In this document: one piece after another, positions 654 to 42,557 of the stretch
How positions within the stretch are numbered: the first letter of the stretch is position 1
Layout of the letters: each line of letters begins with the position of its first letter
Origin: a virus
Direction: 5' to 3' (one strand)
Length of the DNA stretch: 64,000 nt
Virus record (IMG/VR): IMGVR_UViG_3300025120_010946
Coordinates: 1-64,000 of that record
Notes under the pieces: generated by a model
Told to the model about the DNA's origin: nothing
The model's input: only the letters and a program-made list of their open reading frames with translations
The model's database searches: none
Program-made: the position numbers and the translations under genes

Positions 654-1019
654 ATGCCATACATCGTAGGTGCCTTAACAAAAACAAACTTAGATATGAC
701 GGGAGGTATCGTTCGCTCTGGAGTGACGACAACTGCCACTACAAATGAGACTGCGATTATATCTCTTTCTGCGCCAAAATATCAATCTGTTGAGTTTAAT
801 GTGCAAGCAACTCAATCAAGTAGTTTTAATTCTACTATCGTTAAGGCAATGCATGATGGTTCATCAGCATATGTAACGGAATATGGAACACTTCAAGTTC
901 CATCAGGAATTGCTACTTTCTCTGCTGACTTGAGTGGAGGACAACTAAGACTTTTGGCGTATCCTTCATCTGCCGGTTTAACAACCTTTAGTGTAATCTA
1001 CACTGCATTGAACGCATGA
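654..1019 (+). CDS. Small virion-type beta-rich protein
   Basis: A 121-residue protein, ATG at 654, one base after the previous stop. It is Ser/Thr/Ala-rich with short predicted beta strands and no charged clusters, much like its upstream neighbour, though the two are not obviously paralogous. The stop overlaps the next start by 4 bases (ATGA), so the four small genes from the left edge to 1354 look co-translated. Function unknown; a structural role is inferred from context and composition. Confidence 0.55.
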   Translation: MPYIVGALTKTNLDMTGGIVRSGVTTTATTNETAIISLSAPKYQSVEFNVQATQSSSFNSTIVKAMHDGSSAYVTEYGTLQVPSGIATFSADLSGGQLRLLAYPSSAGLTTFSVIYTALNA

Positions 1020-1354
1020 AAACATTTAAGGAGTTTATTCGAGAAGCAGCACCTACAAACTCTACTGGGAGTGGTGTTGATAATTATATTCCATATCTGT
1101 TTAAGAATGAAGATGATGATGATTTAACTCAAGATTATCAAACACCTGCTGAACCAGGTGAGGCAAAATTTAGATTTTCAAACATATATCCAGTTTTAAA
1201 ACTTTCATTATCCAATAGTCAAGGTGATGGACCTAGTATTGATCAAATGGTTCATGCTTCAAAAGAATATACGCAATTAATGGATAATAATACAATTCAA
1301 AGAATACGTGATAATATAAAAAGATTTCAAACTGAAAGAATTCAAGACAATTAA
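1016..1354 (+). CDS. Candidate capsid-targeted internal protein
   Basis: A 112-residue acidic protein. Its N-terminus MKTFKEFIRE|AAPTN closely matches the T4 internal-protein capsid-targeting peptide (MKTYQEFIAE|A), which directs proteins into the prohead core and is removed by the gp21 protease after an (I/L)-x-E site. Here I8-R9-E10|A11 fits that rule. The residues after the cut (APTNSTGSGVDN) also match the sequence after the inferred gp23 cleavage site in this window (LSE|ATPTNSTGSAVDN). I infer packaging in the head and processing. The mature ~102-residue part has no motif I recognise. Confidence 0.65.
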   Translation: MKTFKEFIREAAPTNSTGSGVDNYIPYLFKNEDDDDLTQDYQTPAEPGEAKFRFSNIYPVLKLSLSNSQGDGPSIDQMVHASKEYTQLMDNNTIQRIRDNIKRFQTERIQDN

Positions 1355-10214: not shown

Positions 10215-10777
10215 TGGCACATCGCACAGTTGGTGTCGGACAAAGTATTGCTACAGGTAGCACTAATCAAAAAAGTGCTGCTATTGCAGTAAAATCAAAC
10301 GTTTTAAGAATTACCGCAAGAGGTGGTGATGCTCACGTTGCAATTGGTACTGAACCAGTAGCAGCTGAAACCGATTATCTTATTCCTGCTGGAACAAGTG
10401 AAACTCTGGGAATTACTAAAGCTTCTCAAAGAGTTAGAAGTGTTGAAACGTTAGGCACAAAAACAATTGTCACTTGTCCTGAGGGCACTCAACAACCATT
10501 TGGTGTTGGTGATTGCGTAAGTCTTGAGACAAATCTTGCAGATAGCAACTGGGCGACGATAATTAATCATGTTGGGGTAGATTCTATTGATCAAACAGCA
10601 GATTATGATGGATCTTTTAGTACTAGAGTTACCCTAAGTGCTAATACTGGCACCATTTCTACAGCGTTTTCTGATAATGACGCTACTCTTCGTAGATCGA
10701 TCAAAGTAGGTGCTGTTTCACCTGATAATGCTGGATCTATTTTCGTTCAACAAGTACAAATTACCGGAGTAGCCTGA
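10214..10777 (+). CDS. Virion-type protein between gp67 and gp21
   Basis: A 187-residue protein that overlaps the previous stop (TAATG) and shares a base with gp21. It is rich in Thr, Ser, Ala and Val with no basic blocks, and reads as a beta-rich structural protein with a repeated TITCPEG/SIKVGAVSP-like strand pattern. The slot corresponds to T4 gp68 but I see no similarity to that core protein. It is probably a head-associated or decoration protein; the function is inferred from the operon alone. Confidence 0.55.
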   Translation: MAHRTVGVGQSIATGSTNQKSAAIAVKSNVLRITARGGDAHVAIGTEPVAAETDYLIPAGTSETLGITKASQRVRSVETLGTKTIVTCPEGTQQPFGVGDCVSLETNLADSNWATIINHVGVDSIDQTADYDGSFSTRVTLSANTGTISTAFSDNDATLRRSIKVGAVSPDNAGSIFVQQVQITGVA

Positions 10778-11427
10778 TGAAACTTATCAGAGAAGAAATC
10801 GAATCAGTCGAATTTCTTGTAGAATCAAAGAACGGCAAGAAATCAATGTATATTGAGGGGATTTTCCTTCAAGGAAACATTAAAAACCGTAATGGTAGAA
10901 TGTATCCTATGGAAACTCTTCGTAGAGAAGTTGGTAGATACAATGAAAATAATGTTCAAGCAGGTAGAGCACTTGGTGAACTTGGACATCCTGATGGACC
11001 TACTGTCAATCTAGATCGAGTATCTCATAAAATTGTTTCTCTAAGAGAATCTGGTTCTAACTTTATCGGTAAAGCAAAAATTCTTAGCACTCCTATGGGT
11101 AAAATTGCATCTTCTCTTATAGGAGAAGGTGTAAAGCTTGGTGTTTCTTCTCGTGGAATTGGATCTTTAAAAATGACAAGAGAAGGTGTTAACATAGTCG
11201 GTGACGATTTTATGTTGGCAACTGCTGCTGATATCGTTGCTGATCCTTCTGCACCTGATGCTTTCGTTGAAGGCATTATGGAAGGTAAGGATTGGGTATG
11301 GGATGGTGGTATTCTTCGTGAGAGGTATGCCGATAAAACATATAGAGAAATTAACACTCTAGTCACCCAAAAACAACTCGATGAAAAGAAATTAGATCTT
11401 TTCAACGATTTTCTTAATAATATCTGA
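10777..11427 (+). CDS. 21: Prohead core protease gp21
   Basis: A 216-residue serine protease (herpesvirus assemblin-like, family S78-type) that cleaves scaffold and head proteins after (L/I)-x-E. Catalytic candidates are His71 in GELGHP, Ser124/Ser125 in GVSSRG, and an Asp in ADIVADPSAPDAF. Homology and position between core proteins and scaffold gp22 are clear. Likely substrates in this window are gp22, gp23 (cut at E58|A59), the gp67-like protein, and the proteins at 1016-1354 and 38230-39519. Confidence 0.95.
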   Translation: MKLIREEIESVEFLVESKNGKKSMYIEGIFLQGNIKNRNGRMYPMETLRREVGRYNENNVQAGRALGELGHPDGPTVNLDRVSHKIVSLRESGSNFIGKAKILSTPMGKIASSLIGEGVKLGVSSRGIGSLKMTREGVNIVGDDFMLATAADIVADPSAPDAFVEGIMEGKDWVWDGGILRERYADKTYREINTLVTQKQLDEKKLDLFNDFLNNI

Positions 11428-12632: not shown

Positions 12633-14033
12633 ATGTTCCATTCCGAGCATCTGCAGGAAAAGTGGGCACCCCTTCTTGAGTATGATGGACTTGACTCCAT
12701 CAAGGATCCTCATAGAAAGGCTGTAACTGCCGTCCTGCTTGAAAACCAAGAAAAATTTCTGAAGGAGTCTTCCTCCTTTGAGACTGGTGGATCCCTCCTA
12801 AGTGAGGCTACTCCTACCAACTCAACAGGTAGCGCCGTAGATAACTTCGATCCCGTTCTGATCTCTTTGATCAGACGCTCAATGCCTAACCTGATCGCAT
12901 ATGATCTGGCTGGCGTCCAACCAATGAGTGGACCTACTGGACTCATCTTCGCGATGCGTTCCCGTTATGCCAATCAAACCGGAAACGAAGGATTCTACAA
13001 CGAACCCGATTCCGCATGGAGTGGACAGAACTTCGGTCGTAACCTTACTGGTGGTTTCTCTGATACCGCCGCTGGTATGGGTACTACCGCTCAGGCTGGC
13101 AACAACCCTGCACTCCTGAACCCCACCTCCTCCGCTAACACTAGTGGTGGTGGAACCGACGCTTATAACGTTGGACAAGGCATGACAACTGCCGAGTCTG
13201 AAGCACTCGGAGATGCAGATCAGAACGCCTTCAATCAGATGGCTTTCTCTATTGAGAAAGTTACTGTAACTGCTAAGTCCAGAGCACTGAAAGCAGAATA
13301 CAGCCTTGAGCTTGCTCAAGACTTGAAAGCGATCCATGGACTGAACGCTGAAGCGGAACTCGCCAACATTCTCTCTACTGAGATTCTGGCTGAGATCAAC
13401 CGCGAAGTGATCAGAACCATCTACAAGGTTGCTGAGCAAGGTGCTGTACAAAACGTCGCACAATCCGGTGTATTCGATCTAGACATCGATTCCAACGGAC
13501 GCTGGAGCGTTGAGAAGTTCAAAGGACTTCTGTTCCAAATCGAAAGAGATGCTAACGCGATTGCACAAAGAACTCGTAGAGGAAAGGGCAACACGATCCT
13601 TTGTTCTGCTGACGTTGCTTCTGCACTCACCATGGCTGGTGTACTTGATTACACCCCTGCTCTTAACGCCAACCTCACCGTTGACGACACCGGTAACACC
13701 TTCGCTGGTGTTCTCCAAGGTAAGTATCGTGTATATATCGATCCTTATTCTGCTAACCTTACCTCAGGTAATCAGAGCCCAGGTAACCAGTACTACGTCG
13801 TAGGATACAAGGGATCTTCCCCTTATGACGCTGGACTGTTCTATTGCCCATATGTTCCCCTTCAAATGGTTCGTGCCGTTGGAGAGGACACCTTCCAGCC
13901 TAAAATCGGATTCAAGACTCGTTACGGCATGGTTGCGAATCCCTTCGCTGAAGGCACCCAGGCACAACTCGGCGCTCTTAACATCAACGCCAACCGTTAC
14001 TACAGACGTGTTGCAGTTAAGAACCTCATGTGA
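12633..14033 (+). CDS. 23: Major capsid protein gp23
   Basis: A 466-residue HK97-fold capsid subunit. The N-terminal delta domain ends at the predicted gp21 cut S54-L-L-S-E58|A59-TPTNSTG. Hallmarks of T4-like capsids follow: RRSMPNLIAYDLAGVQPMSGPTG, FNQMAFSIEKVTVTAKSRALKAEYS, FYCPYVPLQMVRA and the C-terminal FKTRYGMVANPF. Codon third positions are visibly richer in G/C than in flanking genes, consistent with very high expression. It is followed by a strong terminator. Confidence 0.98.
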   Translation: MFHSEHLQEKWAPLLEYDGLDSIKDPHRKAVTAVLLENQEKFLKESSSFETGGSLLSEATPTNSTGSAVDNFDPVLISLIRRSMPNLIAYDLAGVQPMSGPTGLIFAMRSRYANQTGNEGFYNEPDSAWSGQNFGRNLTGGFSDTAAGMGTTAQAGNNPALLNPTSSANTSGGGTDAYNVGQGMTTAESEALGDADQNAFNQMAFSIEKVTVTAKSRALKAEYSLELAQDLKAIHGLNAEAELANILSTEILAEINREVIRTIYKVAEQGAVQNVAQSGVFDLDIDSNGRWSVEKFKGLLFQIERDANAIAQRTRRGKGNTILCSADVASALTMAGVLDYTPALNANLTVDDTGNTFAGVLQGKYRVYIDPYSANLTSGNQSPGNQYYVVGYKGSSPYDAGLFYCPYVPLQMVRAVGEDTFQPKIGFKTRYGMVANPFAEGTQAQLGALNINANRYYRRVAVKNLM

Positions 14034-37029: not shown

Positions 37030-38208
37030 ATGGCTACTGGTGTAAAGGAAGGTAGTATAATCGAAGGGATCATGGCGATGTATATTGCCATGATCTTTGC
37101 TGACCCTGATGATGGGGAGAACATGCAAAAAGTAAAATCAAATATAAGTAAACTTAGAAAAGAAACAGTATTGTTGGAGAACATTAAACCAAGAATTGGT
37201 ATCAAAAGATTGTTCCCCCAAGATGATCCATTGGGATATGAAATTGCCCCTGGTAATAGTAATCTCAATCCTAACATGTCTAATGGGCAACCATATTTTA
37301 TTCAGCAGAGAGGTGATAATCCTGCCGATTACATTCAAGTTGGATTGGAAGTTTATCTCAAACCTGCAGAAGTTTATCCTGGATTTGGTGATGAATATTC
37401 TAAGTATGTTGAAGAAAAAAGAGATTATGGAAAATTAGCAAAAAAAGTAGATAATCTAATTGCGTCTAGAGGATCTATTCTTTTTAGAAGACTAATCATC
37501 GCAAAGAAAAAATTTCTTTTAAATAAAGAAACTGATGTCATAAGGTATAATGTTTTAGCTGACGGAGTAACCGGAGAGCAAGCAGATGGTAATGTCAAAG
37601 CGGATATCATTGTAACTATTTTTGCTAATGGGCGAGAATTAATTAAAGATCAAATCAATATCTCTGTCAAGAGCGACTCATCAACTGTTGCCAACCTTGG
37701 AGTCATTAAAGGTTTGGAAGCAATGTATTCAGTCATTTCTCCCAGAGGAAAAACAGCAGTAAAAGCAAATACATTATTGGCAAATATTAAGGCTGCCAAA
37801 AGAGATGCGAAACTTCAATATGTTTCTGCATTATTTGAATTACTTTCTGATAATTTAGTTAATAGTGATGATCCAAAATTTACTGATAGAGCTTTTAATT
37901 TTATAGAGGAAGCGATCTTTGGAGATGATATGGCACAGGTTGTTGATGTAAAATCCTCTGGTGGTAAAGTAAAAGAAATGCAACCAGGACAATTTGCAGC
38001 GTATAGAAAATATGGAGATAAAGGGAAACCAATTAAATTGGTTGCAAAGAAAATGGCAGGTGATATTAGAATAATGCCAAAAGGAGAATCTAATAGTAAT
38101 AATTTTATTTTTAAATTTAGATTTAAGAAAAGAAACTATAAAGATGGATCGGGACAATATGTAGATAAAATTATGATTGAGACAGGCAAACTCACTTACG
38201 CTAAATAA
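37030..38208 (+). CDS. Hypothetical protein, possible PD-(D/E)XK-like nuclease
   Basis: A 392-residue protein with a hydrophobic N-terminal helix (GIMAMYIAMIFADP) and a basic C-terminal part (FKFRFKKRNYKDG). A central stretch, ADIIVTIFANG then INISVKSDSS (D192, S212-V-K214), has the strand-strand layout of PD-(D/E)XK nucleases, with Ser replacing the usual Glu. That is suggestive, not proof. It lies just before the capsid-targeted nucleotidyltransferase gene and starts near a late element, so it may be a virion or internal protein. Not otherwise recognised. Confidence 0.5.
   Translation: MATGVKEGSIIEGIMAMYIAMIFADPDDGENMQKVKSNISKLRKETVLLENIKPRIGIKRLFPQDDPLGYEIAPGNSNLNPNMSNGQPYFIQQRGDNPADYIQVGLEVYLKPAEVYPGFGDEYSKYVEEKRDYGKLAKKVDNLIASRGSILFRRLIIAKKKFLLNKETDVIRYNVLADGVTGEQADGNVKADIIVTIFANGRELIKDQINISVKSDSSTVANLGVIKGLEAMYSVISPRGKTAVKANTLLANIKAAKRDAKLQYVSALFELLSDNLVNSDDPKFTDRAFNFIEEAIFGDDMAQVVDVKSSGGKVKEMQPGQFAAYRKYGDKGKPIKLVAKKMAGDIRIMPKGESNSNNFIFKFRFKKRNYKDGSGQYVDKIMIETGKLTYAK
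38201..38207 (+). promoter_or_regulatory. Late promoter element CTAAATA
   Basis: CTAAATA overlaps the stop of the preceding gene and lies 22 bases before the ATG at 38230. Confidence 0.5.
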
Positions 38209-38229: not shown

Positions 38230-39519
38230 ATGAAAAGTTTCTTCCAGTTCCTTAGTGAAGCGGAATCACAAGCTGCAACACAGGCGAGAAAACTTGGACT
38301 AAAGGGCGACGGACATGGCGGTTGGTTAAATCGTTCTGGGGAGTTTGTTGCTAAAACAGAAGATGGTAAATTAAAATTCTTTAATAAAAATCAGAAACCA
38401 GGTAAAGATCCAGATCAAACTCCAAATACAAAGAAAGTAACTCCGGTTCTCAAGACAAAAACAATGTCTGTGAACAAAGAACCACAAAGTAAAAAGAAAG
38501 GTGGTGAAGAGGAGACTGGTGGTGAAAAAAAGGCAAATAGTGATACCCTCACTCTTGCTTTTGGTAGATTTAATCCTCCTACCGTAGGGCATGAAAAATT
38601 ATTTCAGATGGCTAAGAGAACATCTGAGGGTGGAGATTTAAAAATTTACCCATCTAGGACACAAGACGCGAAGAAAAATCCTCTTGATGCTGACATGAAA
38701 GTTTCTTATATGAAAAAAATGTTCCCTGACTTTGAAGAGAACATTATTAATGATGACGAGATGCGATCTATTTTTAATGTACTTCAAACTGCTGATGGTG
38801 AATATAAAAATGTAAATATCATTGTTGGATCTGATCGTCAATCAGAGTTTGAAAGTCTTGCTACAAAGTATAATGGTGAGTTGTATAATTTTGATAACAT
38901 CCGTGTTGTTTCTGCTGGAGCAAGAGACTCTGACGCTGATGGTGTGGAGGGAATGTCTGCATCAAAGATGAGAAAAGCAGTAATTGATGATGACTATGAA
39001 GAATTTAAAAAAGGAGTTCCTAAGTCAGTTGCTGATGCTGATACACAATCACTATATGATGCAGTTCGTTCAGGAATGAAAATTAAGAAACAAAAAGTCA
39101 CTGCTGAAATGTGGGAGATTGCTCCTAAGTATGATCAAAGGGGATTAAGAGAACAATATGTAAATGGATTTATTTACAAAATGGGTGACATTGTTGAAAA
39201 TCTTAATACCGGATTGATTGGTAAGATTATTCGTAGAGGGACAAATCATCTTATTTGTGTGACTGAGCAAGAATATATGTTTAAATCTTGGATTCGTGAT
39301 GTAATGGAATACACTGAGAAGTCTATGAATAGAAGAATGAGATTGCCTGGAAAACCCAACACCCTTATTGGAACTGGTGGATATTACAAAACTGCTGTTG
39401 CAGCAACTCCAGGATCTCAAGAGGGAGCAAAAAATGTTGCTCCTGGTGGGAAAGTATATAACGGATATTCTAATTCTCTTAAGTTCATAAATAAGTACAA
39501 AGCTAAAAGTAGTAGATAG
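38230..39519 (+). CDS. Capsid-targeted nucleotidyltransferase-like protein
   Basis: A 429-residue protein in three parts. Residues 1-10 (MKSFFQFLSE|A) match the T4 internal-protein targeting peptide and end in an L-S-E|A gp21 site. Then follows KLGLKGDGHGGWLNRSGEFVA and a basic linker. The nucleotidyltransferase core begins AFGRFNPPTVGHEKL (111-125, T118-V-G-H121) and ends SASKMRKAV, the ISSTxxR-like motif of NMN/pantetheine-phosphate adenylyltransferases. A C-terminal 130-residue region is unassigned. I infer packaging into the head and delivery to the host with the DNA. The substrate is unknown. Confidence 0.75.
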   Translation: MKSFFQFLSEAESQAATQARKLGLKGDGHGGWLNRSGEFVAKTEDGKLKFFNKNQKPGKDPDQTPNTKKVTPVLKTKTMSVNKEPQSKKKGGEEETGGEKKANSDTLTLAFGRFNPPTVGHEKLFQMAKRTSEGGDLKIYPSRTQDAKKNPLDADMKVSYMKKMFPDFEENIINDDEMRSIFNVLQTADGEYKNVNIIVGSDRQSEFESLATKYNGELYNFDNIRVVSAGARDSDADGVEGMSASKMRKAVIDDDYEEFKKGVPKSVADADTQSLYDAVRSGMKIKKQKVTAEMWEIAPKYDQRGLREQYVNGFIYKMGDIVENLNTGLIGKIIRRGTNHLICVTEQEYMFKSWIRDVMEYTEKSMNRRMRLPGKPNTLIGTGGYYKTAVAATPGSQEGAKNVAPGGKVYNGYSNSLKFINKYKAKSSR

Positions 39520-39521
39520 CC

Positions 39522-41030
39522 ATGCCTAATGGAATCGGTAAGAACCCCCTTGATGATATTTCAAAGGTATACTTACAAACTGTGCGTGAATCTTACAAAG
39601 TAGAACCACCTCAGGAGAAGTTAAAAACTGATCGTGATATGTTCAATATCCCTAAGGATGAACAGAAAGCTGCTAAAGAACGTTTGTTAGCGAAGGCTGC
39701 TGCTAAACGTGAAAAGATGAAAGTGGAAGCACTTGATCCTGTAGGTAAAGAAGATGGTGATGTTGATAATGATGGAGACAAAGATAAATCAGATAATTAT
39801 TTGTTAAAACGTCGTAAGGCAATTGCCAAAGCGATGAAAACTCGTAAGGAAGAGATTGAAGTTGAAGAGGGTTTCAAGGAACTCTCAAGAGATAAGAGAA
39901 ACAAGATGTTCCGTAAGGCAGGTAACCTGTCACGTACAGCACTACAAGGTGGTGATGAAGGAACTGAGGCAGGCAAAAAATCTGGTAAGATTGTCAAGGC
40001 ACTGAACAAGGATGCTGAAAAGAATAATAGAAATGATGTGAAGAATGAGGAAGTTGAGCAGGTAGATGAGAATCGTCGTGCTGCCGCCGCTGCTGGTGGA
40101 TATAAGGATGACTCCAAGAAACAGACTGATCCTTCTAAGGATGGGTTCACTGGTATCTCTGGTAGCATCAAAGATATTATGAGACAAAATAAAGAGATTG
40201 AAAAAAGAAATAAAATGAAGAAGGAAAGTTACTCCAGTTGGAGGAATGATCTTCGTGAAATAATGGATGATGAAGAAAGTGGTAAAAAAATTAAAGAGAA
40301 GAAAGTAAAAAATAAAGTAATCATCAACCCTAAACTTGGAGAAGCAATACAAGAAATTGGTGGCACTCTGATTGAGTCAATCAAAGAAGAAGATTTTGAT
40401 GATATTGTTGAAAGTGTTTATCTTGAATTAATTGGTGAAGGATATTCAAATGATGATGTTGAAGAGGCGATTGAGTTTGCTCTAACTGAACAACTTAATG
40501 AAGTAAGTGATAGTTACTATGATTCTGCTGTAAAAACATCTAAAGATGCAGATGCTAAGAATAAAAGAGCGGAAATGATGAAGAGAGTTAAAGGACGCCT
40601 TAAATTTATGAAGAGAAGGGCTGGAGAAGTTGCTGGTAATGTTAAAAAGAAAGCTGCCACCGCAGCAGTTGATGTTGCCTTCGCTGCCGATGCAGCAAAG
40701 GACAAGGTAAAGAGTGCTGCCTCTACTGCTAAGAAGAGAGTTGCTGATGCACCCAAAGTTGCTAAAGCAGGTATCAAGAGTAGAATTAAAAAAGCAGCAT
40801 TGGGCGTTGCAAAACGCATGGGTGAAGAGACTGAAGATTCCTTGAAAGATCGTCGCATGGAACGTGGTGGTGTTGACGGCAACAACCGTTACAAGAGTGC
40901 TACTAAAAATGTTGCTATGGGTGGTGGAAAGAAAAAACCCTATGATGGTATGTCTGCACTTGAGAAAGTAAAGGCAAGCATCCGTGCCAAGCATGGACAG
41001 GGTGCTATCATGGATACCAAGAAGAAGTAA
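39522..41030 (+). CDS. Lys/Glu-rich virion-type protein with Asp-rich loop
   Basis: A 502-residue, very charged protein, mostly helical. Residues about 79-93 hold DGDVDNDGDKDKSDN, a calcium-loop-like (dockerin/EF-hand-type) motif followed by YLLKRRKAIAKAMKTRKEE; both recur in cyanophage virion proteins. The C-terminal third is Lys/Ala-rich (KKKAATAAVDVAFAADAAKDK), resembling DNA-condensing proteins. Several L-x-E sites are possible gp21 targets. It follows the capsid-targeted gene by two bases, so an internal head protein is a fair inference. Not recognised as a named family. Confidence 0.55.
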   Translation: MPNGIGKNPLDDISKVYLQTVRESYKVEPPQEKLKTDRDMFNIPKDEQKAAKERLLAKAAAKREKMKVEALDPVGKEDGDVDNDGDKDKSDNYLLKRRKAIAKAMKTRKEEIEVEEGFKELSRDKRNKMFRKAGNLSRTALQGGDEGTEAGKKSGKIVKALNKDAEKNNRNDVKNEEVEQVDENRRAAAAAGGYKDDSKKQTDPSKDGFTGISGSIKDIMRQNKEIEKRNKMKKESYSSWRNDLREIMDDEESGKKIKEKKVKNKVIINPKLGEAIQEIGGTLIESIKEEDFDDIVESVYLELIGEGYSNDDVEEAIEFALTEQLNEVSDSYYDSAVKTSKDADAKNKRAEMMKRVKGRLKFMKRRAGEVAGNVKKKAATAAVDVAFAADAAKDKVKSAASTAKKRVADAPKVAKAGIKSRIKKAALGVAKRMGEETEDSLKDRRMERGGVDGNNRYKSATKNVAMGGGKKKPYDGMSALEKVKASIRAKHGQGAIMDTKKK

Positions 41031-41230
41031 TGCCTGCCGTATCAAAGGCACAGCAAAGGTTTATGGGTATGGTTTATGCCACCAAGAAAGGTGACATGAC
41101 TAACCCTTCTCCTGAGGTTGCCCAAGCAGCAGCATCCATGAAGAAGAGTGATGCGAAAGACTTTGCATCAACTAAGCATAAAGGACTTCCTAAAAAGAAA
41201 TCTCTTAAGGAGTTTTTAGAGAATATATAG
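41030..41230 (+). CDS. DUF3008-type small basic protein
   Basis: A 66-residue protein opening MPAVSKAQQRFMGMVYATKKG, then SPEVAQAAASMKKSDAKDFASTKHKGLPKK. This is the full layout of DUF3008, a short basic family common in phages and some bacteria. The C-terminus SLKEFLENI resembles the core of the capsid-targeting peptides in this window. It shares a base with the preceding stop. Possibly nucleic-acid binding or virion-packaged; the function is not known. Confidence 0.75.
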   Translation: MPAVSKAQQRFMGMVYATKKGDMTNPSPEVAQAAASMKKSDAKDFASTKHKGLPKKKSLKEFLENI

Positions 41231-41495: not shown

Positions 41496-42557
41496 ATGGC
41501 ACTCTGGGGCAATAAAGACAATATCACTGCAACAGGTAGAGTTACCTTGGATTATCAAACCGGTATTGTCACCGGTTCTAACTTAGAAGATCAAGGTAAT
41601 GGTACAAAGTTTGGTGAGACAGGTGAAGTTCAAGAAGGAGACATTATCCGTTTCGGTGTAATCGATAAACCTGGCGTTTATATGGGAGATGCTGTTGTTG
41701 TCTCTGTTGCCGGTACTACATCTCTCACTATTGGTTCCACTATGGGACTTGATGGTGTTGCTATTGGAAGAACCACATTCCAGGTTTCTCAGGCACCTAA
41801 ATCCACCGTTCTTGATCGTTCCTTTAGTGAGGACGATAATATCAATGATGGCGCACCAACGCTTGTTAACGAAATTATTAAAACAGCAAACTCTGCAACA
41901 GCAACCACAGGTGTAGGCGCATCTATTCTTGATGTTAAAACTACTCTCTTATCAACTGGTGGTGTTAAGGTTGGCGACTTCATCGTAAATGATGGAAATA
42001 ACATCAAAATCATTGGTGTAGGAACTGCTACCTTCCACGCTAACTTTAATAGTGGCATCGGTTCTGATAGAATTTTCGTTAATGGTACAGTTCCTGGTTT
42101 AGATACTGACAGTCTTATTCATAATTCTAATGGTAATCAACTCCTTGGTGTAACTGGTGTTGGTGCAACGTTCTTTACCATCGATCCTGTGTTAACGGCT
42201 GGCATTGCCACCAATGGCACTCTCCTTTTGGACTCCTTTGTTGATCAAGTATTTGCGTTTGATCATCACTTCGCTATTGGGCTTGAAAGTAATATCACTG
42301 CTGCTATTAGCGCAGGTGATGCTATCCAAGTTAAGAGACAAAAAGGTGGATACTCTAGAAATGTCTATGGTGTAGGCAAAACTGGAGTAGAAGACGCTGC
42401 TGGAGGTGTATATGAAACTAGTGCTGGATGGGTTGGTATTACAACCTACATAGACACTGAGGGTAACCTTAGAGTTAAGAGTGAAGTTCTGGTTGCCATG
42501 TCTGGCATCTCTACCGGTAACGTTCCTTCTTATCCCAATATTGAAAACGCTAACTGA
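41496..42557 (+). CDS. Virion structural protein
   Basis: A 353-residue protein. The N-terminus MALWGNKDNITATGRVTLDYQTG is a recurring start of cyanophage virion proteins. It is Gly/Thr/Asn/Ile-rich with regular beta-strand pattern and a repeated V-G-A-T/S-F-type phrase (GVGTATFHANF, GVGATFFTIDP). No catalytic motif is seen. A perfect late promoter precedes it. Likely a tail, baseplate or decoration component; the exact position in the virion is not known. Confidence 0.7.
   Translation: MALWGNKDNITATGRVTLDYQTGIVTGSNLEDQGNGTKFGETGEVQEGDIIRFGVIDKPGVYMGDAVVVSVAGTTSLTIGSTMGLDGVAIGRTTFQVSQAPKSTVLDRSFSEDDNINDGAPTLVNEIIKTANSATATTGVGASILDVKTTLLSTGGVKVGDFIVNDGNNIKIIGVGTATFHANFNSGIGSDRIFVNGTVPGLDTDSLIHNSNGNQLLGVTGVGATFFTIDPVLTAGIATNGTLLLDSFVDQVFAFDHHFAIGLESNITAAISAGDAIQVKRQKGGYSRNVYGVGKTGVEDAAGGVYETSAGWVGITTYIDTEGNLRVKSEVLVAMSGISTGNVPSYPNIENAN

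What the first reader, a model, noticed from the sequence alone, without database searches (positions are those of the whole stretch)
38230..39519. A nucleotidyltransferase with a T4-type capsid-targeting peptide
The N-terminus MKSFFQFLSE|A parallels T4 internal proteins (MKTYQEFIAE|A), with the gp21 site exactly after residue 10. The body carries FGRFNPPTVGH and SASKMRKAV, the two motifs of NMN/CoA-type adenylyltransferases. If packaged, the phage injects an enzyme that could act on host nucleotides or NAD before any phage gene is expressed.
Basis: partly seen in the sequence, partly recalled or inferred. Interest (0 to 1): 0.75.

Follow-up and report, generated by a model that had tools for sequence, protein, structure and literature searches.

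The report
Virion-targeted nucleotidyltransferase of marine cyanophages
This marine T4-like phage tags a nucleotide-handling enzyme with the same ten-residue address label that phage T4 uses to load proteins into its head, so the enzyme is very probably packed in the virus particle and injected into the host with the DNA, although what the enzyme acts on is still unknown.

Summary
ORF 38230..39519 begins MKSFFQFLSE|A; T4 IPII and IPIII begin MKTYQEFIAE|A. The same N-terminal pattern is in 250 of 257 related loci (201 distinct proteins). It keeps the IPIII positions shown by mutagenesis to matter (4, 7, 8, 10), even where the next ~90 residues are deleted. In about 53 kb of T4 the pattern finds only ipII and ipIII. 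In about 52 kb of cyanophage S-CREM2 it finds four genes, all detected in virions by published mass spectrometry: this enzyme, a SAM lyase, a kinase and a small protein.

The family (T4-GC190/PHROG_395, 'cytidyltransferase') is already known. Four T4-like cyanophage copies reported in virions (S-SM1, S-SCSM1, S-CREM2, S-SZBM1) carry the tag. Tag-less copies in S-PM2 and CBB were not reported in virions. Some authors could not exclude contamination; the tag supplies a packaging mechanism that no paper in the library links to cyanophages.

The body is a nucleotidylyltransferase-superfamily domain with conserved catalytic motifs (AlphaFold2 pLDDT 87; Foldseek E about 1e-5 to both PPAT and NMNAT). 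It fails curated NMNAT cut-offs and is mostly TxGH, not HxGH. 'Acts on NAD' is plausible but unproven. Packaging and processing in this phage remain inferred.

The parts
38230..39519 (+). CTS-tagged nucleotidylyltransferase, 429 aa (T4-GC190 / PHROG_395 'cytidyltransferase')
   Evidence: ORF; PHROG_395 E=9.5e-99; 59% identical to the S-SCSM1 virion protein ORF91
38230..38259 (+). Predicted capsid-targeting propeptide MKSFFQFLSE; predicted gp21 cut between 38259 and 38260 (E10|A11)
   Evidence: Matches T4 IPII/IPIII; M1, F7, E10 invariant in 12 diverse phages; pattern in 250 of 257 loci
38263..38382 (+). Small N-terminal module (residues 12-51, ..KLGLKGDGHGGW..); absent in S-CREM2, S-H34 and S-CRM01 homologs; a similar stretch lies in a CTS-tagged kinase and a Cas9-like virion protein
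   Evidence: phrog_3561 match to residues 2-62
38398..38535 (+). Low-confidence, variable linker (residues 57-102)
   Evidence: pLDDT < 50
38542..39084 (+). Nucleotidylyltransferase alpha/beta core (residues 105-285)
   Evidence: AlphaFold2 pLDDT about 85-95 over most of it; Foldseek to PPAT, NadM and NadD, E 3.6e-6 to 2.3e-5
38560..38592 (+). Motif FGRFNPPTVGH ((H/T)xGH signature)
   Evidence: F, G, R, N, P and the final H invariant in 63 diverse homologs
38956..38973 (+). Motif SASKMR (second catalytic signature, SxSxxR)
   Evidence: first S and R invariant in 63 diverse homologs
39136..39309 (+). C-terminal small beta module (residues 303-360), a separate ORF in the Syn1 / S-RSM4 / S-PM2 lineages
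   Evidence: model; phrog_4808; split ORFs
10777..11427 (+). gp21-type prohead protease that would remove the propeptide
   Evidence: N-terminus closely matches S-SCSM1 ORF40, annotated prohead protease
12633..14033 (+). Major capsid protein gp23; predicted cut GGSLLSE58|ATPTNS, the same [LI]xE|A type as in the NTase
   Evidence: T4 gp23 has GSFLTE|A
1016..1354 (+). Second CTS-tagged ORF in the genome (MKTFKEFIRE|A), 112 aa, between the structural genes and terL
   Evidence: homologs in S-SM2 and S-SKS1; CTS ORFs near terL in S-SCSM1 and S-SZBM1
39522..41030 (+). Neighbour; homolog of S-SCSM1 virion protein ORF92
   Evidence: 48.6% over 218 aa; virion label
41030..41230 (+). Neighbour (DUF3008); homolog of S-SCSM1 virion protein ORF93
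   Evidence: 84%; Pfam
41496..42557 (+). Neighbour; homolog of S-SCSM1 virion protein ORF95 (annotated as tail fiber)
   Evidence: 52-59% in two pieces

Best explanation
The gene encodes a nucleotidylyltransferase that is loaded into the phage head by a T4-type N-terminal capsid-targeting sequence. Proposed steps. (1) Residues 1-10 (MKSFFQFLSE) bind the prohead core through F4 and F7. (2) The gp21-type protease cuts after E10, as it does in gp23, leaving an enzyme starting at A11 inside the mature head. (3) The enzyme enters the cell with the DNA at infection. (4) In the cell it transfers a nucleotidyl group, most likely AMP from ATP, to a small phosphorylated substrate, with NMN/NaMN (making NAD or NaAD) the leading candidate, giving the phage early control of a cofactor pool. 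Step 1 rests on sequence plus T4 genetics; the packaging outcome is shown for homologs by published mass spectrometry, not for this phage. Steps 2 and 3 are inferred from T4. For step 4, fold and catalytic motifs are shown; substrate and purpose are inferred.
For: Pattern identity with T4 IPII/IPIII, and a control scan of about 53 kb of T4 that hits only ipII and ipIII. Published IPIII mutagenesis: the first 10 residues suffice, 4 and 7 target, 8 and 10 process (PMC9026906). 250 of 257 loci and 201 distinct proteins keep the pattern: K2 199/201, pos 4 F/L/Y, F7, pos 8 mostly L/I, E10, A11 184/201, while 3, 5, 6 and 9 vary. Across 12 diverse phages M1, F7 and E10 are invariant, no column in residues 12-107 is, and three homologs lack residues ~12-100 yet keep the tag. 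Virion-detected homologs carry it: S-SCSM1 MKSFLQFLKE|A, S-SM1 MKKFSAFLNE|A, S-CREM2 MKNFSSFLTE|A, S-SZBM1 MRFRQFIIE|A. In the scanned S-CREM2 DNA, 4 of 4 tagged genes are virion proteins, p = 8.4e-5. Tag-less S-PM2 and CBB copies were not reported in virions. The same phage's gp23 site is SLLSE|A. Fold and catalytic motifs.
Against: No proteomics of this uncultured phage; no N-terminal peptide known to me for any homolog. The tagged S-CREM1 copy does not appear among the 14 proteins of that shallow proteome. CsCl-purified virions can carry contaminants, as the authors say. Substrate unresolved: NMNAT equivalog scores are far below cut-off, PPAT and NMNAT folds match about equally, and the first histidine is T in most members. 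A tag-less lineage (Syn1, S-RSM4 and others) keeps the enzyme, so virion delivery is not essential to its function everywhere.
Confidence: 0.72

Rival explanations
1. Packaged, but the relevant activity is not NMN/NAD chemistry: the enzyme adenylylates or cytidylylates another acceptor (phosphopantetheine, a sugar- or lipid-phosphate, RNA or a host protein).
For: PPAT is the single best Foldseek match (1o6b, E=3.6e-6); TxGH is typical of PPAT (own knowledge) and dominant here; TIGR01510 coaD hits 16 of 63 members weakly; public annotations disagree (cytidyltransferase, NMNAT, NadR-like).
Against: NMNAT-type models hit more members (TIGR00482 53, TIGR01526 48 of 63); the SASKMR arginine is NMNAT-like (own knowledge), and some members have HxGH.
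Confidence: 0.4
2. Packaged mainly for a structural or assembly role (scaffold-core component like IPIII); enzyme activity is incidental or acts inside the prohead.
For: T4 IPIII affects head assembly (PMC9026906); the protein carries extra modules and sits in a block of genes whose S-SCSM1 homologs are virion proteins.
Against: Catalytic residues are strictly conserved, and the same tag sits on a SAM lyase and a kinase, which fits delivery of activities better than architecture.
Confidence: 0.12
3. Not a virion protein: an auxiliary metabolic enzyme made in infected cells; virion peptides are contamination and the N-terminus is coincidental or serves another end.
For: Authors allow contamination; tag-less homologs exist; the S-CREM1 and S-PM2 proteomes did not report it.
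Against: Tag pattern with position-specific conservation, T4 control, 4/4 tag-virion match in S-CREM2, four separate virion detections of tagged copies.
Confidence: 0.1

Closest known systems
Bacteriophage T4 internal proteins IPI/IPII/IPIII with their capsid-targeting sequence
   Same: 10-residue N-terminal propeptide with aromatic/hydrophobic residues at 4 and 7, [LI]xE ending at 10, A at 11; gp21-type protease and gp23 site of the same kind in the same genome
   Different: Cargo is a 429-aa multi-domain enzyme, not a small basic protein; cleavage and injection not shown here
T4 Alt ADP-ribosyltransferase
   Same: An enzyme carried in the head, processed by gp21 and injected, using nicotinamide-nucleotide chemistry if the NMNAT reading is right
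   Different: Unrelated enzyme and a different (7-residue) propeptide
Cyanophage T4-GC190 / PHROG_395 'cytidyltransferase' (S-SM1, S-SCSM1 'NMNAT', S-CREM2, S-SZBM1)
   Same: Homologous (S-SCSM1 59% over the whole protein, S-SM1 about 42%), same tag, detected in virions
   Different: The tag and its meaning were not described in the papers found; some lineages (S-PM2, Syn1, S-RSM4) lack it
NMN/NaMN adenylyltransferases (NadM, NadD, NadR) and phosphopantetheine adenylyltransferase (CoaD)
   Same: Same alpha/beta fold, (H/T)xGH and SxSxxR motifs
   Different: 11-17% identity in structural alignments, far below equivalog cut-offs, mixed motif features
RaK2/CBB-type jumbo-phage cytidyltransferase (178-179 aa)
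   Same: Same catalytic core
   Different: No capsid-targeting sequence, no C-terminal beta module; CBB_73 is not in the published CBB virion table

Membership tests
T4-type CTS-bearing internal head protein | N-terminal propeptide with targeting residues 4 and 7 and processing residues 8 and 10 | tested here: met
   positions from PMC9026906
T4-type CTS-bearing internal head protein | gp21-type prohead protease and matching gp23 cut site in the same genome | tested here: met
   10777..11427 and SLLSE|A in 12633..14033
T4-type CTS-bearing internal head protein | Present in the mature virion | tested here: inconclusive
   Literature: four tagged homologs detected, one tagged homolog not among 14 proteins, two tag-less ones not reported; this phage itself untested
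T4-type CTS-bearing internal head protein | Propeptide removed by gp21 | not testable with these tools
   Needs N-terminal proteomics
T4-type CTS-bearing internal head protein | Injected into the host with DNA | not testable with these tools
   Inferred from T4 only
PHROG_395 / T4-GC190 | Sequence homology to the family | tested here: met
   E=9.5e-99; P-SSM2 and S-SM1 records label the homologs T4-GC190
Nucleotidylyltransferase superfamily (PF01467) | (H/T)xGH and SxSxxR motifs, alpha/beta fold | tested here: met
Nucleotidylyltransferase superfamily (PF01467) | Pfam gathering score (21 bits) | tested here: not met
   15.7 bits for this protein; four homologs reach 21.2-30.4
NMN adenylyltransferase (equivalog) | Curated cut-off of TIGR00482, TIGR01526 or PRK01153 | tested here: not met
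   19.5 vs 112.45, 17.9 vs 341.15, 15.1 vs 127 bits
NMN adenylyltransferase (equivalog) | NMN/NaMN adenylylation | not testable with these tools
   Needs enzyme assay
Phosphopantetheine adenylyltransferase (CoaD) | TIGR01510 equivalog score and basic residue of the second motif | tested here: not met
   no TIGR01510 hit for this protein and only weak hits in 16 of 63 members; R in place of the usual K (the K from own knowledge)

The most novel reading that the evidence does not exclude
Marine T4-like phages use a short, mobile capsid-targeting tag as a general loading code. The same 10-residue address is put on unrelated enzymes (this nucleotidylyltransferase, a SAM lyase, an APH-like kinase, perhaps a Cas9-like protein), so that a swappable set of effectors is injected with the DNA to disarm host defences (restriction through SAM loss, NAD depletion) before any phage gene is read.
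Probability: 0.4. Interest if true: 0.82.

Novelty: new variant of a known kind. Interest (0 to 1): 0.62.

Why it matters
Several cyanophage papers found this enzyme in virions but could not say whether it was carried or a contaminant. The tag gives a packaging mechanism and a single-residue prediction (mature N-terminus at A11), and it makes a sequence rule for finding other injected enzymes in several hundred known phage genomes and in metagenomes. Lineages without the tag give a natural control. If the activity is NMN adenylylation, it would be an NAD-acting enzyme delivered with the DNA, relevant to NAD-depleting phage defences.

Tried and rejected
PDB sequence searches gave nothing usable (the A1 and A3 profiles gave noise-level hits, among them FAM155A and haemagglutinin HA2, with archaeal NMNAT 1f9a only at E=0.34). 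PADLOC: no hit. The first full-length AlphaFold2 model was weak overall (pLDDT 67) and was replaced by the catalytic part (87). The Polyvalent Proteins paper (PMC5512222) does not mention cyanophages or cytidylyltransferases. Namat of NARP1 was considered as a functional parallel and rejected as a homolog: it is Nampt-like (PMC12774641). Scans with the S-CREM2 and S-CRM01 homologs returned one locus each. The idea that the N-terminus is merely the start of the following domain was rejected, because it is kept where that domain is absent. The glycerol-3-phosphate cytidylyltransferase idea of the S-SZBM1 paper has no support in the model hits listed here.

Full report
WHAT IS THERE. The window is part of a 78,130-base virus record with T4-type structural and replication genes; the nearest named relative of the protein is in Synechococcus phage Bellamy, 64.7% identical over the whole length. 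ORF 38230..39519 is a clean 429-codon gene.

THE TAG. I read T4 ipII and ipIII from the T4 record: both begin MKTYQEFIAE|A. A review of the T4 work reports that the first 10 residues of IPIII suffice for packaging, that residues 4 and 7 matter for targeting, and 8 and 10 for processing (PMC9026906). In the family studied here those are the conserved positions. Of 257 loci with a family member 250 match the pattern; among 201 distinct proteins K2 is kept in 199, position 4 is F/L/Y, 7 is F, 8 is mostly L or I, 10 is E and 11 is A in 184, whereas 3, 5, 6 and 9 vary. Caution: the pattern used for selection fixes classes at 4, 7, 8 and 10, and the loci are related, so the counts are not independent. 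Of the seven exceptions two are cut by contig ends, one has the tag one residue further in (MTKSLSQFLTEA), one is diverged (MKNFFQFVQN), and three are distant homologs (a methylophage and two jumbo phages). In an alignment of 12 diverse phages M1, F7 and E10 are invariant although no column between residues 12 and 107 is, and S-CREM2, S-H34 and S-CRM01 have lost residues ~12-100 and still keep the tag. A scan of about 53 kb of T4 with the looser pattern hits ipII and ipIII only; ipI has a longer, different propeptide.

THE PROTEASE AND ITS OTHER SITE. The same genome has a gp21-type protease (10777..11427) and a gp23 whose predicted cut is GGSLLSE|A, as T4 gp23 has GSFLTE|A. FLSE|A of the NTase is the same kind of site. 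Cleavage itself was not tested.

VIRION EVIDENCE FROM RELATIVES. S-SM1: a putative citidylyltransferase (T4-GC190) was detected in purified virions and was among the proteins not detected in S-PM2 (PMC3037559). S-SCSM1: ORF91 (NMNAT) detected (PMC9602691). S-CREM2: ORF154 detected, 3 peptides (PMC10665884). S-SZBM1: ORF140, the only enzyme detected, 2 peptides (PMC9146016). All four carry the tag: MKKFSAFLNE|A, MKSFLQFLKE|A, MKNFSSFLTE|A and the one-residue-shorter MRFRQFIIE|A. Two homologs without the tag were not reported in virions: S-PM2 p139, which has an unrelated N-terminus, and CBB_73, which is not in the part of the CBB virion table that I could read and is named nowhere in that paper's main text. 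Against this, the tagged S-CREM1 copy does not appear among its 14 detected proteins, so detection is not perfect; with seven phages the comparison is suggestive only. The authors of the S-SCSM1 and S-CREM2 studies explicitly left open carriage versus contamination.

AN INDEPENDENT TEST. I scanned the part of S-CREM2 that I had fetched (bases 1-42,000 and 120,000-130,000; 100 annotated genes, 11 of them virion proteins by mass spectrometry). The pattern hits four genes, and all four are virion proteins: a SAM lyase/hydrolase (MKDFDSFLEE), gp13 (MKDLHSFLTE), an APH/ChoK-like kinase (VKRFDAFLTE) and the NTase; chance 8.4e-5. The kinase of S-CRM01, cited in PMC10665884 as a virion protein, starts MISFDQFLSE. 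In S-SCSM1 the pattern hits two annotated gene starts, the NTase (virion) and a small ORF next to terL (not detected).

THE ENZYME. PHROG_395 'cytidyltransferase' E=9.5e-99; Pfam CTP_transf_like is sub-threshold for this protein but above threshold for several homologs. An AlphaFold2 model of residues 103-362 from 63 homologs has mean pLDDT 87; Foldseek finds PPAT (3.6e-6), NadM (1.2e-5), NadD (2.3e-5) and archaeal NMNAT (6.5e-5). F, G, R, N, P and the last H of the first motif, GxDR, and S and R of the second are invariant. Most members have TxGH and a minority HxGH. NMNAT equivalog models are the commonest specific hits but all far below cut-off. So it is very probably an active nucleotidylyltransferase; its substrate is open. 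A C-terminal beta module (303-360) is part of the protein here and a separate ORF in Syn1, S-RSM4, ACG-2014h and S-PM2.

NEIGHBOURHOOD. Downstream neighbours 39522, 41030 and 41496 match S-SCSM1 ORFs 92, 93 and 95, all labelled virion proteins. The gene therefore sits in a block of virion-protein genes between mazG and the primase gene.

TAG-LESS LINEAGE. Syn1, S-RSM4 and ACG-2014h encode a 187-203-residue NTase that starts at the catalytic motif; close homologs of the S-RSM4 form occur in about 50 records (only these three N-termini were read). The enzyme thus exists with and without the address label, which supports the label being a functional add-on and offers a natural control.

WHAT IS KNOWN AND WHAT IS NEW. 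Known: the family, its core status in cyanophages, its virion detection and the NAD guess. Not found in the library searched: any link between cyanophages and capsid-targeting sequences; the only paper with both terms is the T4 review. That search covers open-licence papers only. New here: the tag on this family, its position-specific conservation, its coincidence with virion proteins including a SAM lyase and a kinase, and the tag-less lineage.

VERDICT. Packaging by a T4-type tag is well supported by inference and homologs (about 0.85); nucleotidylyltransferase activity is likely (about 0.85); NMN/NaMN as substrate is a leading but unproven guess (about 0.45).

Noticed in passing
window 1016..1354 (+): A 112-aa ORF starts with a CTS-like MKTFKEFIRE|A, and its next residues APTNSTGSGVDNYIP nearly copy the mature N-terminus of this phage's own gp23 (ATPTNSTGSAVDNFDP). 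It may mimic or compete with gp23 in the prohead. Homologs only in S-SM2, S-SKS1 and a few marine virus records.
   Followed up: partly
L102:3840-5081 (-), L102:10582-12846 (-), L102:7707-10313 (-) (S-CREM2): Virion-detected SAM lyase and APH-like kinase carry the same tag at residue 1; the virion-detected 'Cas9-like' protein has RFASFMAE|A at residues 18-25, followed by the KAERLGLVSDGHGS module also seen in the NTase.
   Followed up: partly
window 39522..41030: The neighbouring protein starts MPNGIGKNPLDDISKVYLQTVRE; Bellamy 171 and S-SCSM1 virion protein ORF92 share 'DISKVYxxxV' near the N-terminus. It could be a second kind of head-targeting signal.
   Followed up: no
L091:2341-3585 (Melnitz-2), L267:796-1989 (Syn1), L274:9481-10671 (S-SZBM1): DUF6267 proteins (T4-GC71, with KWDGAP as in covalent ligase-type nucleotidyltransferases) sit next to the NTase in several phages, and phrog_455 spans both; in Melnitz-2 the DUF6267 protein may itself start MINFSKYITE|D, a tag-like N-terminus. 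Absent beside the gene in this window.
   Followed up: partly
L097 (S-SCSM1 44215, +), L273 (S-SZBM1 122628 and 123125, -): Small tag-bearing ORFs near terL (MKTFKQFMSE, MKSFKSFLSE, MKTFKQYITE) occur in other cyanophages at about the place of window 1016..1354.
   Followed up: no
L268:2540-2794, L268:3368-3709, L269:2609-2821, L269:3585-3818: In the tag-less lineage small proteins start MKDFKKLREEA, MKTFKQFREEC and MKSFNQFREDC: tag-like but with R at position 8, perhaps targeted yet not processed.
   Followed up: no
window 37030..38208: 392-aa upstream protein without Pfam or PHROG match; only a weak PADLOC HEC-03A hit (E=0.023).
   Followed up: no
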